From Trueperaceae bacterium (GTDB lineage Bacteria > Deinococcota > Deinococci > Deinococcales > Trueperaceae): a DNA stretch of 64,000 bases. The notes under the pieces were generated by a model that worked only from the letters and a program-made list of their open reading frames with translations, was not told the origin of the DNA and made no database searches. The position numbers were made by a program, and so were the translations under genes. This document shows positions 41,709 to 47,647 of the stretch, one piece after another; the first letter of the stretch is position 1; every line of letters starts with the position of its first letter. The stretch is taken from the NCBI GenBank assembly GCA_011389865.1, contig JAABTL010000002.1, forward strand, positions 1 to 64,000, read 5' to 3'.

Positions 41709-44231
41709 TCAGGCCTCGGACACGATGCGCACCGTGCCGCGGTCGCCGTCGACCTCGAGCAGCATGCCGTCGCGGATGCGGCGGGTGCCGACGCGGGTGT
41801 CGACGACGGCGGGAAGCCCGTACTCGCGTGCGATGACGGCGGTGTGGCTCAGGACGCCTCCGGTGTCGGTCACCAGGCCCGCGGCGATCCCGAAGAGTGG
41901 CGTCCAGGGCTGCGAGGTGGTGGTCGCGATGAGGATCTCGCCCGGGCGCAGTTGCCCCGCATCGCGCAGGTCGCGCAGGACCCTGGCGCGCCCGCGCGCG
42001 AGGCCGCGTGCGCCGGGTGTGCCGGTGACGACGTCGGGCTCGCGGGTCTCGGGCGGCGGGCGGCCGGCGTAGGTGTCGCCCGCGGTGGCCGCCGAGCTGG
42101 GCGGCGTGCCCAGCGACTCGGGCGGGTCGACGTCTGCGAACTCGCGCAACTCGCGCTGCCGTTGGGCGATCAGAGCGCGCCTATCGAGCGTGGGGGAGGC
42201 CGCCCACGTCGCGCGCAACTCATCGAAGGTGAGGTGGGCCACGTCCTCGGGTGCGGCGATGGAGGTAGCGTCCGCGAGTCGTCGACCGACCTCGAGAAAG
42301 ACGCGCCGGACGGCGGCGGTGGTCTTGTAGTCGATCAGGAAGTTGTGGTCTTCCGAGACCACGAACGCGGACCAGCCGGCGGCGAGGCGTTGCTCGAACG
42401 CCGCGCGCACCGGCTCGGGATAGCCGCTCAGCCGTTCGCGGGCCGCGGCGACCCGGCGCTCCCGGTCCACCGCCACCTCCGCGTGGCGGGCGCGGGCGTC
42501 ATTGCCGGGGCGCCGCAGCGCGTCCTGGAGCATGGCGATCACGGGGGTCGGGTCCTCGACCAGGCTGGGGGCGCTCAGCGCCAGGTAGAGGGTGCGGCGC
42601 CCGAAGTCGGCCAGGTAGGCGTCGAGGGCCTCTCGCACGGCGGTGGCGTCGTCGCGCCGTGCCAACGCCCCTGGGACCTCGGCGGCCGGCAGGGCGACGA
42701 GCTCCTCGCCCAACCCCGGCACCGCCTCGACCGCGTCCCGCACGGCCCACAGCGCCGCCCCGGCGCGGGTCGTCAGGGTTTCCCGGCCCTGTAGGAGGCC
42801 GGCGGCGTCGAGTTCACTGACGTCCTCGAAGAGCTCGCGGTGGAGCGCCACGAAGGCGTCGCCGGCCCGACCTACGGGGATGACGATCTCGAAGTGCAAC
42901 CGCCAGACGCGCACCAGGCGCTCGCACGTCTCGTCGAGGTGGGCGAGCAGCGCTGCGTCGTCGGCGCCACGCAGGTCGAAGCCGTCCCAGAAGGCGAGAT
43001 GGGCCTCGATCTCCGGCCGCCAGCGCCAGGTCCAGACGTTCTCCAGCCCCGCATCGGTCTCGGCGTACGCGGCCTCGCCGCGCGCACTCCAGGCGGTGCG
43101 CTCCGCCTCGGACAGCTCCAGCCGGTGTCGCGACGAGTAGAAGCGCGTCCAGAAGCGTCGGGTGTGGAAGGTAGTCGGGATGCCGTAGATGTGGGCGCCG
43201 TGCGTGAAGCCCACCTCGTACACCAGGCGCGTGAGTTCGTCGTCGAGCACCGTGGTCTGACCGGGGAAGTGCACGCGGTCGCGCGTCCAGTACCGCGTCG
43301 CGTCGTCGTCCTCACGCCAGGGTGTCGGCAACCCGCCCAGCGGGTCGTCCGGCGTCGCCACCGAGCCCGGCGTGGGGTCCGGCAGCGCGGTCACGGGACG
43401 GCACTGCAGCAGCTGGAGTTCGCCGCCGGCAATCGCGAACTCGACGTCCACGGGCCATCCCTGAAGCGTCTCCAGGTCGCGCGTCAGCGTCGCCACGGCG
43501 GCCAGGTCACCGTCCGCGAGGGCCGGCCGTTCGCGCAGGAACTTCGGCACCCCCAGTTCGACGGTACGGTCGCCGGCGAGGACGGTCATCTTGGCCTTGT
43601 CGCTAGGCCGGGCCTCGACGACCCGGAGGCTTGCCTTGTCGAGCGTCCAGCCGTCGGGGGTGACGTGACCTGCGACCAGGCTCTCGCCCAGCCCCCAGGT
43701 GGCGTTGACCACCATCCGGTCACGCCGGCCCGAGACCGGGTCGGCGCTGAAGGCCACCCCCGACGCGTCCGCGACCACCAGGCGCTGGACGAGCACGGCG
43801 AGCGCGAGGCCGTCCTCCGGCAATCCGTGGTCGCGCCGGTAGGCGAGCGCGGTGTCGCTCCGCAGCGAGGCCCAGGTGCGCTCGATCGCCTCGAGCACGG
43901 CGTCGAGGCCGACAACCCCGAGGATCGTCTCGTGCTGGCCCGCGAAGGAGGAGGCCGGGCCGTCCTCGTCGAGCGCCGAGGAGCGCACCGCGACGGGTGC
44001 CGGCGCTGTGTCATCGCCGACGAGGTGCGTGTACGCGTCGACGATGGCGCGGCTCAGCTCCGGATCGATGCTGCCCTCGCGTTCGGCTCGTCGGTAGGCC
44101 TCGGCAGTGAGACAGAAGCCCGGCGGCACCGGGTGGGATGCCGCGAGGGCGCTCAGGTGGGCCGCCTTCGGGCCGACGAGCGCGGGGTCCGCGGCGCGGG
44201 GATCGCCGAGGAAGAGGACGAATGGGGTCAC
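41709..44231 (-). CDS. Rph/PEP-synthase-like phosphotransferase, copy 1
   Basis: This 840-residue enzyme has three parts. An N-terminal ATP-grasp domain of about 290 residues has [40 protein letters not shown] and VDVEFAIAGGELQLLQCRPV. A helical middle region covers about 300-730. A C-terminal swivelling domain carries the phosphohistidine ([20 protein letters not shown]). This order and length fit rifampicin phosphotransferase and related PEP-utilising enzymes that move the beta-phosphate of ATP to a small molecule. The substrate is not known. GTG start at 44231 overlaps the stop of an 8-codon leader ORF. Paralog of the 45079-47580 gene. Confidence 0.85.
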   Translation of the reverse strand: MTPFVLFLGDPRAADPALVGPKAAHLSALAASHPVPPGFCLTAEAYRRAEREGSIDPELSRAIVDAYTHLVGDDTAPAPVAVRSSALDEDGPASSFAGQHETILGVVGLDAVLEAIERTWASLRSDTALAYRRDHGLPEDGLALAVLVQRLVVADASGVAFSADPVSGRRDRMVVNATWGLGESLVAGHVTPDGWTLDKASLRVVEARPSDKAKMTVLAGDRTVELGVPKFLRERPALADGDLAAVATLTRDLETLQGWPVDVEFAIAGGELQLLQCRPVTALPDPTPGSVATPDDPLGGLPTPWREDDDATRYWTRDRVHFPGQTTVLDDELTRLVYEVGFTHGAHIYGIPTTFHTRRFWTRFYSSRHRLELSEAERTAWSARGEAAYAETDAGLENVWTWRWRPEIEAHLAFWDGFDLRGADDAALLAHLDETCERLVRVWRLHFEIVIPVGRAGDAFVALHRELFEDVSELDAAGLLQGRETLTTRAGAALWAVRDAVEAVPGLGEELVALPAAEVPGALARRDDATAVREALDAYLADFGRRTLYLALSAPSLVEDPTPVIAMLQDALRRPGNDARARHAEVAVDRERRVAAARERLSGYPEPVRAAFEQRLAAGWSAFVVSEDHNFLIDYKTTAAVRRVFLEVGRRLADATSIAAPEDVAHLTFDELRATWAASPTLDRRALIAQRQRELREFADVDPPESLGTPPSSAATAGDTYAGRPPPETREPDVVTGTPGARGLARGRARVLRDLRDAGQLRPGEILIATTTSQPWTPLFGIAAGLVTDTGGVLSHTAVIAREYGLPAVVDTRVGTRRIRDGMLLEVDGDRGTVRIVSEA

Positions 44232-44254
44232 CTGTGCCGCACGACGTGGGTCAT
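44228..44254 (-). CDS. Leader peptide MTHVVRHR, coupled to copy 1
   Basis: Eight codons from ATG 44254 to TGA 44228-44230. The best ribosome site of the transcript (GGAGGCGG) is in front of this ORF, not the enzyme. The TGA overlaps the enzyme's GTG (GTGA), so translation of the enzyme probably depends on the leader. A leader of equal length, MTHVVRRS, precedes the paralog. Confidence 0.55.
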   Translation of the reverse strand: MTHVVRHR

Positions 44255-44292
44255 TGCCGCCTCCGGTTAGAGCCTGTGGGGTCGAAGGCGGA

Positions 44293-44298
44293 AGTATA
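44293..44298 (-). promoter_or_regulatory. TATACT -10 box of phosphotransferase copy 1
   Basis: Minus-strand GACATCCGCTATACT is shared exactly with the copy 2 promoter. Transcription would start about 30 nt before the leader peptide. The -35 is weak. Confidence 0.55.
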
Positions 44299-44375
44299 GC
44301 GGATGTCGCCTGACAATGCCATGACGCAGGGACAGGGCGGATGGCGCGTCAGGGCGCCGCGATGGTGCCGGCGGC

Positions 44376-44501
44376 TCAGCGCCGCTGCACCGCCACGAAG
44401 TCGCGGTACCACAGCGCGCTGGACTTCGGCGTGCGCGCCTGCGTGGCGAAGTCGACGTGGATCAACCCGAAGCGCTTGCCGTAACCGTGCGCCCATTCGA
44501 A
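44376..44501 (-). pseudogene. C-terminal remnant of a GH1 beta-glucosidase
   Basis: The last 42 codons read [20 protein letters not shown] then [19 protein letters not shown]. That is the C-terminal end of family 1 glycosidases, including the conserved Glu-Trp aglycone-site region. The rest of the enzyme, with both catalytic glutamates, is gone. It is fused in frame to the MFS remnant, so a deletion joined the two genes. Confidence 0.85.
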
Positions 44502-45079
44502 GATCGATACGCCCGCCGGGAGGAAGCCCGGCCGCTCGTGGAGCCGCAGGCCGACGACGGGCGACGGCGTGCGCGCGACGTGGCGACGCAGCAGCCCGAC
44601 CGCAACGAACGAGGTCAGCGCGAGCGCGGCCACCGCCGGCCACGGTACCCCCGGCACGCGCCAGACGGTGGCGGCGAGGGCGAGGGTCACGAGCCCGGTC
44701 AGCAGCAGCGCGGTCGCGTTGGGGATGGCGCTCGCGCCGGTGATCGCCTGGGCGGTGCGGGCGGCGATCAGGACCTCGACCGTGGGCGCGAACGCGGCCA
44801 CGGCGCTGGCGACGGCGAAGCCGCCGAGCCCGAGCAGCATGAGCCGGCGGCGGCCGAAGCGATCGCCGAGCGAGCCGCCGAGCGGCTGGACCGCGGCCAT
44901 CGCCACCAGGTACCACACGACGATCCAGCTTCCCCACGTCAGCGAGGCGCCGAGGTCGGCCAGCACCTCGGGGAGGGCGACCACGATCATCGTCGAGTCG
45001 AGTGGCGCGAGGACGCCGGCGAACAGCGCCGCGGCGAGGCGATCACGTCGCCGGTCGGCGGGCGCGCCGGCCCGGGCAT
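44502..45079 (-). pseudogene. Deleted and frameshifted copy of the MFS transporter
   Basis: It begins [14 protein letters not shown] right at the stop of phosphotransferase copy 2 (TGATG). A 5-nt insertion (TCGCC) relative to the intact copy then shifts the frame. From 44990 the reading continues as [20 protein letters not shown], matching residues 27-121 of the intact copy. About 83 residues are then missing, and it resumes as [20 protein letters not shown] up to [11 protein letters not shown]. The remaining 180 residues are replaced by a GH1 tail. A functional transporter is not possible. Confidence 0.88.
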
Positions 45080-47580
45080 CAGGCCTCGGACACGATGCGC
45101 ACCGTGCCGCGGTCGCCGTCGACCTCGAGCAGCATGCCGTCTCGGAAGCGGCGGGTGGCGATGCGGGTGCCGACGACGGCGGGGAGCCCGTACTCGCGCG
45201 CCACCACGGCCGTGTGGCTCAAGACGCCGCCGGCGTCGGTCACCAGGCCCGCGGCGATGCCGAACAGCGGCGTCCACGGTTGCGAGGTGGTGGTCGCGAC
45301 GAGCACCTCGCCGGGCCGCAATGCGCCAGCGTCGTTCAGGTCCCTCAGGATCCGTGCGCGCCCGCGCGCGCGGCCCCGCGATCCGGCGTTGCCGGTCACG
45401 ACGTCGGGTTCGCGTGTCTCGGCCGGCGGTCGTCCGGCGAGATCGTTGCCGGCGGATGCCGCGGCGTCCGGTGGGGCGCCCACGTGCTCGGGCGGGTCGG
45501 CGTCCGCGAAGCGCCGCATCTCGTCGCGTCGTGCTCCGATGAGCGATGTGAGATCGCCGCCGCCGGCGAGCGCGGCGCGCAGTTCGGCCCACGACAGCAG
45601 GAACACGTCGTCGGCCGCGGCGAGGGCCCCCGAGGCTACCAGGCGTCGGCCGACCTCGAGCACGACCCGCCGGACGGCGGCGCTGCCGCCGTAGTCGAGC
45701 AGGTAGGCGTGGTCCTCGTCGAGCTTCGCGGCGAACTGCGCCTTCGCCAGCTGAGCGTCGAACTCGCGTCGCACGGGTGCGGGGTACCCGGCGAGCCGCG
45801 CACGGGTCTCCGCGACCCGGCGCTCGCGGTCGGCCACCACCTGCGGATGCCGACGGCGCGGGTCGCCATCGGGGTGAGCCAGCGCGTCCTGCAGCATGGC
45901 CGCGACCGGGGTCGGGTCCTCGGCGAGGCTCGGCGCGGTCAGGGCGAGGTAGAGCGTGCGACGCCCATGTTCGTGAAGGTACGCGTCGAAGGCGGCGGCC
46001 GCGACCGCCGCCTCGGGCCAGGTGCGCAGCGCCGCGGCAACGCCCTCGGGTGGCAACGCGCGGAGGCGCTCGGGCAGCCCAGGGACGCTGGCCACCGTGT
46101 CGCGCACGTCCCACAGGGCGGCGCCGGCACGTGTGGTCAGGCTGTCCTGGCCCTGCAGGAGGTCGACGGCGTCGAGCTCGTCGGCGTCGGGGAACAGCTC
46201 GCGGTAGAACGGCAGGAACTGGCCGCGGGCGCGCAGGAGCGGGATCCCGAGCTCGAAGTGGAGGCGCCAGAGCCGCGCGAGGCGCGCGTGGGTCTCGTCG
46301 AGGTGCGCGAGGAGTCCGGCGTCCGAGGCGGCGGCGAGGTCGAAGGTGTCCCAGAACGCCAGGTGCCCCTCGAGCTCCGGCCGCCAGCGCGTGCGCCAGG
46401 TACCCTCGAAGTCGGCCATCACGGCCCGGTACGCGGCCTCGCCCGACGCCTTGACCTCCAGTGCCTCGGACGGCGGCAGGTCGGGCGTCAGGTTGCACTC
46501 GTAGTAGTAGGTCCAGAAGCGTCGGCTCAGGGAGGCGACCGGGATGCCGTAGTGTCGCGCTCCGTGGGTGATGCCCTCCTCGACCGCCAGGCGCATGAGC
46601 TCGAAGTCGAGGGGGGTGATCTGGCCGGGGACGTGCATCCGGTCGCGCCGCCACGCGCGCGTGGGATCCTCCGCTTCGACCCACGGGGCCGGCAGCTCGC
46701 CCAGCGCCTCGTCCGCGGTGGTGTCGTCGGGCAGCGCGGTCACGGGGCGGCACTGCAGGAGGTGGAGTTCGCCGTCCGCGACGGCGAACTCGACGTCCAC
46801 CGGCCATCCCTGGAGCGTCTCGAGGTCGCAAGTCAGCTTGGCCACGGCGGCGAGCTCGGCGTCCGACAGCGCCGGCCGTTCGCGCAGGAACGTCGGCACC
46901 GCCAGTTCGACGGTGCGATCGCCGGCGAGGACGGTCATCTTGCCCTTCTCGCTGGGTCGCGTCTCGACGACGTGGAGGTCGGTCTTGGCGAGCGTCCAGC
47001 CGTCGGGCGTGACGTGCCCGGCGACCAGGCTCTCGCCCAGGCCCCAGGTGGCGTTGACGATCATCCGGTCGCGACGACCGGAGACCGGGTCGGCGCTGAA
47101 CGCGACCCCCGAGGCGTCCGCGACGACGAGGCGCTGGACGAGCACGGCGAGCGCGAGGCCGTCCTCCGGGAGCCCGTGGTCGCGCCGGTAGGCGAGCGCG
47201 ACCTCGCTGCGGAGCGAGGCCCAGGTGCGCTCGATCGCCTCGAGCACGGCGTCGAGCCCGACGACCCCGAGGATCGTCTCGTGCTGGCCGGCGAAGGACG
47301 CGGCCGGGCCGTCCTCGTCGAGCGCCGAGGAGCGGACGGCGACGGGCGGCGGCGGCGAGGCGTCGCCCACGAGTCGCGCGTAGGCGTCGACGATGTCGCG
47401 GCTCAGGTGCGGGTCGATGCCGCCCGCGCGTTCGGCGCGCCGGTACGCCTCCGCGGTCAGGCAGAAGCCGGGCGGCACCGGGTGGGATCGCGCGAGCGCG
47501 CTGAGGTGCGCGGCCTTGGGGCCGACGAGCGCGGGGTCCGTGGCACGGGGATCGCCGAGAAGGAGGACGTAGGGGGTCAA
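45079..47580 (-). CDS. Rph/PEP-synthase-like phosphotransferase, copy 2
   Basis: This 833-residue enzyme is a paralog of the 41709-44231 gene with the same three parts. The ATP-grasp domain is nearly the same ([40 protein letters not shown]). The phosphohistidine domain is [20 protein letters not shown]. The middle region (about residues 300-700), which binds the acceptor in Rph, is much more divergent, e.g. [16 protein letters not shown] instead of FWTRFYSSRHRLELSE. The acceptor may therefore differ. TTG start at 47580 overlaps the stop of the leader peptide. Its own transporter gene is destroyed. Confidence 0.85.
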
Positions 47581-47603
47581 CTGCGCCTCACGACATGGGT
47601 CAT
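47577..47603 (-). CDS. Leader peptide MTHVVRRS, coupled to copy 2
   Basis: Eight codons from ATG 47603 to TGA 47577-47579, overlapping the TTG start of the enzyme (TTGA). GGAGGCGA precedes the ATG. Compared with copy 1 the first six residues are kept, including one synonymous change (CAC/CAT). Confidence 0.55.
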   Translation of the reverse strand: MTHVVRRS

Positions 47604-47641
47604 CGTCGCCTCCGGGTCGGGCCTGTGGGATCGAGGGCGGC

Positions 47642-47647
47642 AGTATA
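47642..47647 (-). promoter_or_regulatory. TATACT -10 box of phosphotransferase copy 2
   Basis: Same GACATCCGCTATACT block as copy 1. The downstream CCCACAGGC, just before the leader ribosome site, is conserved too. Confidence 0.55.

What the first reader, a model, noticed from the sequence alone, without database searches (positions are those of the whole stretch)
41709..47603. Duplicated phosphotransferase genes, each with a conserved 8-codon leader ORF overlapping its start
Both Rph-like genes are preceded by MTHVVR-type leaders (44228-44254 and 47577-47603). Each has a strong ribosome site, and its TGA overlaps the enzyme's GTG or TTG start. The enzyme start itself has no separate strong site, so its translation should depend on the leader. 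Leader-controlled translation is a known mode for antibiotic-resistance genes. With an MFS exporter directly downstream of copy 1, this looks like a possible modify-and-export unit that senses its substrate or a stalled ribosome. The substrate is unknown.
Basis: partly seen in the sequence, partly recalled or inferred. Interest (0 to 1): 0.75.

Follow-up and report, generated by a model that had tools for sequence, protein, structure and literature searches.

The report
Short leader ORFs coupling enzyme translation
Two neighbouring enzyme genes in an environmental Trueperaceae bacterium each start inside the stop codon of a tiny 8-codon reading frame that probably just hands them its ribosomes; this is a tidy new example of a known arrangement, not evidence of an antibiotic sensor.

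Summary
Two tandem RPH-like dikinase genes (840 and 833 aa) each follow a GGAGG-led 8-codon ORF whose TGA overlaps the enzyme's GTG or TTG start. In the 3.05-Mb genome this pattern occurs only at these two places. All four scorable loci of the genus have it: both window copies, the orthologue in G004, and a decayed copy in G001. Ribosome site, ATG, length and stop/start overlap are kept; the peptide drifts ([32 protein letters not shown]). The likeness of the two window leaders is not independent evidence: the copies are mosaics whose 5' ends are younger than their middles. An acetolactate-synthase-like gene of the genus shows the same layout with unrelated peptides of 5 or 6 codons. Examined homologues outside the genus lack an SD-led leader. 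Best reading: a ribosome-delivering minicistron (termination-reinitiation), like the coupled RTGA small ORFs of mycobacteria. Sensing of substrate or stalled ribosomes has no support. The enzyme has the RPH fold and catalytic-His motif; its substrate is open. The enzyme-MFS pair is conserved in G004; the second MFS copy is broken.

The parts
44228..44254 (-). leader ORF 1, MTHVVRHR*, 8 codons; TGA overlaps the GTG of enzyme 1
44260..44264 (-). Shine-Dalgarno GGAGG of leader 1
   Evidence: invariant in 4 of 4 leaders
44293..44298 (-). -10-like TATACT of copy 1 (read by eye)
41709..44231 (-). enzyme 1: RPH-type small-molecule dikinase, GTG start, 840 aa
40348..41703 (-). MFS exporter (DHA2/EmrB-like, below the family cut-off), 5 nt after enzyme 1
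   Evidence: same pair in G004
47577..47603 (-). leader ORF 2, MTHVVRRS*, 8 codons; TGA overlaps the TTG of enzyme 2
47609..47613 (-). Shine-Dalgarno GGAGG of leader 2
47642..47647 (-). -10-like TATACT of copy 2 (read by eye)
45079..47580 (-). enzyme 2: RPH-type small-molecule dikinase, TTG start, 833 aa; predicted fold aligns with RPH from end to end
44376..44990 (-). ORF made of part of a broken second MFS copy fused to the C-terminal end of a GH1 glycosidase

Best explanation
Each leader is a ribosome-delivering minicistron. A ribosome binds the strong GGAGG site, translates 8 codons, terminates at the TGA and reinitiates on the overlapping GTG or TTG of the enzyme, which has little or no ribosome site of its own. 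The peptide is largely irrelevant; what is kept is the ribosome site, the ATG, the short length and the 4-nt overlap. Shown: the layout, its rarity in the genome, its conservation in the genus without evident peptide conservation, and a similar layout at an acetolactate-synthase-like gene. Inferred: that reinitiation rather than independent initiation makes the enzyme.
For: 4 of 4 genus loci with a 5' end keep SD, ATG, 8 codons, TGA and the NTGA overlap. Of 42 aligned columns 23 are invariant, and all 11 SD/ATG/TGA columns are among them: hypergeometric P 3e-4, or 1e-3 without the TG that the enzyme start also needs (the sequences are related, so P is a guide). Peptides drift: 17 of 27 nt and 4 of 8 residues identical between copy 1 and G004. 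The pattern is unique to these loci in the own genome. The enzyme starts have no SD (copy 1, G001, G004; read by eye) or a weak one (copy 2). An ilvB-like gene shows the same layout in 4 of 4 matched genomes of the genus with MQRGIG, MQRGIG, MQRGNG and MGGSA. 4-nt overlaps at a possible start are common on this contig: 51 of 183 same-strand neighbours. In sister genus g12 the two halves of the same enzyme meet in ATGA or GTGA in 4 of 4 genomes. Precedent: coupled RTGA small ORFs in mycobacteria (PMC4633059, passages).
Against: No expression data. Four loci in one genus is a small sample, and two are tandem copies. Three of four leaders share MTxVVR, so weak selection on the peptide is not excluded (lowest P 0.076). 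Copy 2 has a weak GAGG before its own start. The ilvB-like start has its own GAGGT inside the leader, so that case shows the layout but not a need for coupling. The examined homologues outside the genus do without an SD-led leader, so the enzyme as such does not need it.
Confidence: 0.75

Rival explanations
1. Regulatory leader: the nascent peptide or a paused ribosome on the leader senses a drug or metabolite and gates enzyme translation, as in erm or cat leaders.
For: Three of four leaders share MTxVVR, with some synonymous changes; RPH-type fold and MFS neighbour.
Against: G004 reads MTLAVCVR; no pair shows significant excess amino-acid identity, P 0.076-0.72. No structure beyond shuffles (z +0.7, +2.8, +1.2; 3 of 4 leaders folded) and no Rfam match. 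No strong second SD to mask. Rifamycins act on RNA polymerase, not the ribosome (recalled). A metabolic gene has the same layout.
Confidence: 0.09
2. Relic of an N-terminal frameshift: the leader ATG is the ancestral enzyme start, an indel put the first codons out of frame, and the overlapping GTG/TTG rescued translation; the 'leader' is a scar that now works by reinitiation.
For: g12 and Solirubrobacteraceae homologues have in-frame N-terminal extensions whose starts lie 36-48 nt before the conserved LG/LE block; the leader ATG lies 44 nt before it (distances counted by hand).
Against: G022 (same family) and two Chloroflexi (L024, L044) start at or near the window's enzyme start without an extension, and L022 lies between. 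Eight codons are too few to test homology.
Confidence: 0.1
3. Programmed -1 frameshifting fuses leader and enzyme into one protein.
For: The enzyme frame is -1 relative to the leader and overlaps its stop.
Against: No slippery heptamer and no shared sequence before the stop: CACAGGTGA, CGCAGTTGA, CGCGCTTGA, GTCCGTTGA. The NTG at the overlap is GTG or TTG in all four.
Confidence: 0.02
4. Chance: the short frame is not used and the enzyme is translated on its own.
For: Across the 39 family genomes the bare 8-codon pattern is no commoner than its reversed control (52 against 46).
Against: In the genus it is 4 against 0, all before this enzyme; 4 of 248 starts against about 0.15 expected; kept between genomes that differ at 6-11 of the 27 leader positions; no adequate alternative ribosome site in 3 of 4.
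Confidence: 0.04

Closest known systems
Coupled RTGA small ORFs of mycobacteria (Shell et al. 2015, PMC4633059; passages read)
   [quoted passage not shown] in their Fig. 6B example the peptide is not conserved but the linkage is.
   Different: Their enrichment test concerns leaderless transcripts; these leaders have a strong SD. Here three of four overlaps are TTGA. Different phylum.
Termination-reinitiation at overlapping gene pairs (Huber et al. 2019, PMC6728339, passages; review PMC12548453, passages)
   Same: 4-nt stop/start overlap; the review names short upstream ORFs that 'deliver' a ribosome.
   Different: The usual upstream partner is a full gene; here it has 8 codons.
Synthetic short leader ORFs (PMC13255528, start of abstract in the listing; bicistronic design, recalled)
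   Same: A meaningless short ORF in front of a gene raises its translation.
   Different: Engineered, with an internal strong ribosome site; these leaders have none, or a weak GAGG in copy 2.
Antibiotic-sensing leaders (toiL, PMC12121999, passages; ermC and cat, recalled)
   Same: Short ORF upstream of a gene that could give resistance.
   Different: toiL acts through RNA structure over a separate ribosome site; here no such structure was found and the peptide drifts.
Rifampin phosphotransferase RPH (PMC4844700, passages)
   Same: ATP-grasp, middle substrate domain, C-terminal His swivel; aligned over 727 residues, Z 29.1, rmsd 12.7.
   Different: About 25% identity; 343 and 350 bits against the RPH cut-off of 999; substrate untested.
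Two-component dikinase HpeHI (PMC12167813, abstract and passages)
   Same: Same domains and T/SxxGGxxxH motif; HpeI matches the ATP-grasp part (9goj). The g12 and Solirubrobacteraceae homologues are likewise split.
   Different: HpeHI is split and acts on phenols; the window enzymes are single chains of unknown substrate.

Membership tests
Coupled small ORF (RTGA/NTGA minicistron) | Short ORF whose TGA overlaps the downstream start by 4 nt | tested here: met
   4 of 4 scorable genus loci
Coupled small ORF (RTGA/NTGA minicistron) | Linkage conserved more than the peptide | tested here: met
   four related sequences only
Coupled small ORF (RTGA/NTGA minicistron) | Downstream translation depends on the small ORF | not testable with these tools
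   Needs reporters or ribosome profiling
Antibiotic-sensing leader peptide | Conserved arrest or codon motif in the peptide | tested here: not met
   [32 protein letters not shown]; only M, T and V5 in all four; P 0.076-0.72 by pair. Small sample; three of four share MTxVVR
Antibiotic-sensing leader peptide | Alternative RNA structures that mask the downstream start | tested here: inconclusive
   118-nt pieces of 3 of 4 loci: z +0.7, +2.8, +1.2 against shuffles; G001 not folded, G004's upstream region cut by the contig end
Rifampin phosphotransferase (RPH) | ATP-grasp, substrate domain, C-terminal His swivel in one chain | tested here: met
   (model of copy 2, pLDDT 78, pTM 0.58)
Rifampin phosphotransferase (RPH) | Catalytic His in T/SxxGGxxxH | tested here: met
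   TDTGGVLSH and TDAGGVLSH; this His invariant in 7 of 7 aligned
Rifampin phosphotransferase (RPH) | NCBIfam RPH equivalog cut-off (999 bits) | tested here: not met
   343 and 350 bits
Rifampin phosphotransferase (RPH) | Phosphorylates rifampin | not testable with these tools
   Needs an enzyme assay

The most novel reading that the evidence does not exclude
Trueperaceae of this genus use SD-led minicistrons with disposable peptides as an interchangeable translation module in front of otherwise unrelated genes (two tandem dikinases and an acetolactate synthase so far). Enzyme output would then be set by reinitiation and would respond to the state of termination and ribosome recycling, a global rather than a substrate signal.
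Probability: 0.17. Interest if true: 0.5.

Novelty: new member of a known kind. Interest (0 to 1): 0.33.

Why it matters
It gives a clean natural case, in a lineage not named in the passages I read, where the linkage of a tiny ORF to a gene is kept while its peptide drifts. That separates 'leader as ribosome loader' from 'leader as sensor', a distinction easily missed when a short ORF is found before a resistance-like gene. It also warns that likeness between tandem copies can come from recent shared origin rather than selection on the peptide.

Tried and rejected
Peptide-level conservation of the leader: tested for all six pairs, not supported. RNA structure: no excess over shuffles in the 3 leaders folded; Rfam: none in the window. 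A pairing over the leader SD appears in the predicted fold of copy 1 only. Frameshifting: no slippery site. Sequencing error: rejected, as the same frame relation is seen in three separately assembled genomes. Leaders in more distant homologues: I examined 13 of the 26 loci; L019 (= G004) has the leader, the other 12 have no SD-led one. Against a clean contrast, 3 of these 12 (L021, L025, L043) have a short GTG-led frame ending in ATGA at a possible enzyme start, and L044 a 24-codon ATG frame ending in TGATG, all without a GGAGG-type SD. Not examined: L020 (= G003, 5' end beyond the contig) and 12 archaeal loci. G035 lacks the 5' end of its first half. Leaders of other lengths in the own genome: 141 pattern places against 16 for the control, of which 100 were listed; I read 94 after dropping 6 overlapping rows; 10 are in-frame minicistrons. 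Two are the leaders here and one is ilvB. Of the other seven, four (C20:1780, C10:19839, C25:6526, C5:76114) have ORFs of 86-405 codons with positive coding score behind and were not resolved; C26:19248 has 36 codons behind, and C22:141736 and C30:9390 have negative coding scores. In the fold comparison the first row is PEP synthase 2ols (Z 30.0, 268 residues), tied with RPH 5hv1 (Z 29.1, 727 residues). RPH's rifampin-contact residues were not checked, for want of a safe alignment there. Literature: rifampin phosphotransferase with leader peptide, 0 papers in the held library; other searches. In checking this report I corrected an earlier wording that copies 1 and 2 are each other's closest relatives over codons 1-300 (copy 2 is as near to G004 there) and lowered confidence slightly, also because the ilvB-like start has its own GAGGT.

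Full report
Observation. Both leaders are present at the stated coordinates and read MTHVVRHR* and MTHVVRRS*; the TGA of each overlaps the enzyme's GTG (44231) or TTG (47580) in the tetranucleotides GTGA and TTGA. GGAGGCG sits just upstream of each leader ATG, and a TATACT box further upstream. Copy 1 has no Shine-Dalgarno (SD) before the enzyme start; copy 2 has a weak GAGG. The enzyme frame plausibly begins at the overlap: RPH aligns from its third residue with the second residue of the query used, which begins one residue after that start.

Chance. The pattern GGAGG-N3-7-ATG-N20-DTGA occurs at 2 places in the 3.05-Mb genome, both here, with 0 for the reversed control. In the five genomes of the genus it occurs 4 times against 0, each time before this enzyme or its remnant; in all 39 family genomes 52 times against 46, i.e. 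at chance level elsewhere (sums by hand). On the 283-kb contig I called 248 genes with a simple codon model. Four start in the stop codon of a strong-SD ATG minicistron of 3-30 codons; all NTG triplets give 10 of 16,373, or 0.15 per 248, and 0 of 3,828 internal in-frame NTG codons qualify. One of the four is a ParE-like gene overlapping its upstream neighbour; the others are the two window copies and an acetolactate-synthase-like gene.

Relatives. The two best-matching named records are Trueperaceae MAGs. The enzyme is patchy: 8 of 39 family genomes, the window's own included, at E <= 1e-60. G004, same genus, 83% identical to copy 1, has ATGACCCTGGCCGTTTGCGTCCGTTGA, MTLAVCVR*, overlapping a TTG start. 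Its enzyme is followed directly by an MFS gene and, after other ORFs, by relatives of the window's aminotransferase and helicase genes (recognised by eye). The family pattern search turned up a fourth leader in G001, MTPVVRRA*, before a decayed enzyme and MFS remnant. There the single remnant lies between a glycosidase-like gene like the one upstream of copy 2 and the aminotransferase that lies downstream of copy 1 (by eye). G002 has no match and G003 lacks the 5' end. So 4 of 4 scorable loci in the genus carry the layout.

Outside the genus. In sister genus g12 the three genomes with a 5' end (G015, G037, G038) start the enzyme in frame behind an SD-like site, and G022 starts at a TTG (by eye). 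Of the 13 loci examined only G004's has an SD-led leader; 3 of the other 12 have SD-less GTG frames ending in ATGA at a possible start, and one a frame ending in TGATG. In g12 the enzyme is split into an ATP-grasp ORF and a substrate/swivel ORF that meet in a 4-nt overlap in 4 of 4 genomes (G015 GTGA, G037 ATGA, G038 GTGA, G035 ATGA, the last two read by eye).

What is conserved. Of 42 aligned columns around the four leaders 23 are invariant, and all 11 SD, ATG and TGA columns are among them (P 3e-4; 1e-3 without the TG that the enzyme start also needs). These sequences are related, so P is only a guide. In amino acids no pair of leaders is significantly more alike than its nucleotide differences predict (P 0.076 to 0.72). 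Three of the four share MTxVVR, so weak selection is not excluded.

The tandem copies are mosaics. Between copies 1 and 2, pS is 0.24-0.34 over codons 1-300 and 0.17 over the last 60, but 0.42-0.54 between, where copy 1 is nearer to G004 (0.24-0.39). Over codons 1-300 copy 2 is about as near to G004 (0.19-0.39) as to copy 1. The switch in third-position sharing (copy 1 with copy 2, against copy 1 with G004) is significant: Fisher P 3.6e-7 for codons 1-300 and 5e-4 for the last 60. Either the ends were homogenised between the copies or copy 2 acquired a divergent middle; the direction was not settled. The diverged middle corresponds to RPH's substrate-binding domain (residues 327-754 there). 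Either way the 5' ends, leaders included (23 of 27 nt), are of recent common origin, so the shared MTHVVR is not two independent cases of conservation.

A second instance. The acetolactate-synthase-like gene of this genome (C22:127635-129326; TPP-enzyme domains) has GGAGG, ATG and MQRGIG* with GTGA overlap. The same place reads MQRGIG in G001, MQRGNG in G002 and MGGSA (5 codons, ATGA) in G004; G003 had no match (these three translated by eye). Here length changes too, and the peptides are not rich in branched-chain residues as an ilv attenuator's would be (recalled). Its start has a GAGGT of its own inside the leader in the own genome, so this case shows the layout, not a need for coupling.

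Mechanism. The simplest account is delivery of ribosomes by the minicistron followed by termination-reinitiation. No structure beyond shuffles was found (z +0.7, +2.8, +1.2 for copy 1, copy 2 and G004) and no Rfam family, which argues against attenuation. Short ORFs that deliver ribosomes, and coupled RTGA small ORFs with drifting peptides, are already described (PMC12548453, passages; PMC4633059, passages). That reinitiation, rather than separate initiation, makes the enzyme is inferred.

The enzyme. Pfam shows PPDK_N and PEP-utilizers domains in both copies. An AlphaFold model of copy 2 from seven sequences (pLDDT 78, pTM 0.58) aligns with RPH over 727 residues (5hv1, Z 29.1, rmsd 12.7, which may reflect another domain arrangement or model error) and with PEP synthase 2ols (Z 30.0) and HpeI over the ATP-grasp part. 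The TxxGGxxSH motif is present in both copies. NCBIfam scores fall far below the RPH cut-off, and the best score is to undecylprodigiosin ligase RedH, also far below its cut-off. The substrate could be an antibiotic, a phenol or something else.

The exporter. Copy 1 is followed after 5 nt by an intact DHA2/EmrB-like MFS gene, a pair also seen in G004. The MFS after copy 2 is broken and fused to a GH1 fragment.

Verdict. A genuine, rare and conserved layout, best explained by a known kind of translational coupling. The sensor reading is not supported.

Noticed in passing
C22:127635-129326 of the window's genome (L048:3635-5326, minus strand): Acetolactate-synthase-like gene with the same SD-led minicistron and stop/start overlap; peptide and even length vary within the genus.
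   Followed up: partly
L007/L014 (G015), L008/L013 (G037), L010/L012 (G038), L009 (G035): In sister genus g12 the dikinase is split into two ORFs at the ATP-grasp/substrate-domain border, meeting in ATGA or GTGA, like the two-component HpeHI family; the first ORFs of the Solirubrobacteraceae homologues L021, L025 and L042 also end there.
   Followed up: partly
window 41709-47580: Tandem paralogues are mosaics: ends alike, substrate domain (codons about 300-780) strongly diverged, suggesting different substrates.
   Followed up: partly
window 44376-44990: Part of a broken second MFS copy fused to the C-terminal end of a GH1 glycosidase.
   Followed up: partly
L068 (G001): Decayed enzyme and MFS remnant with the leader and stop/start overlap still intact; the -10-like box is altered (by eye).
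   Followed up: partly
L006 (G022): Dikinase homologue with two in-frame TAG codons reported by the search; not looked into.
   Followed up: no
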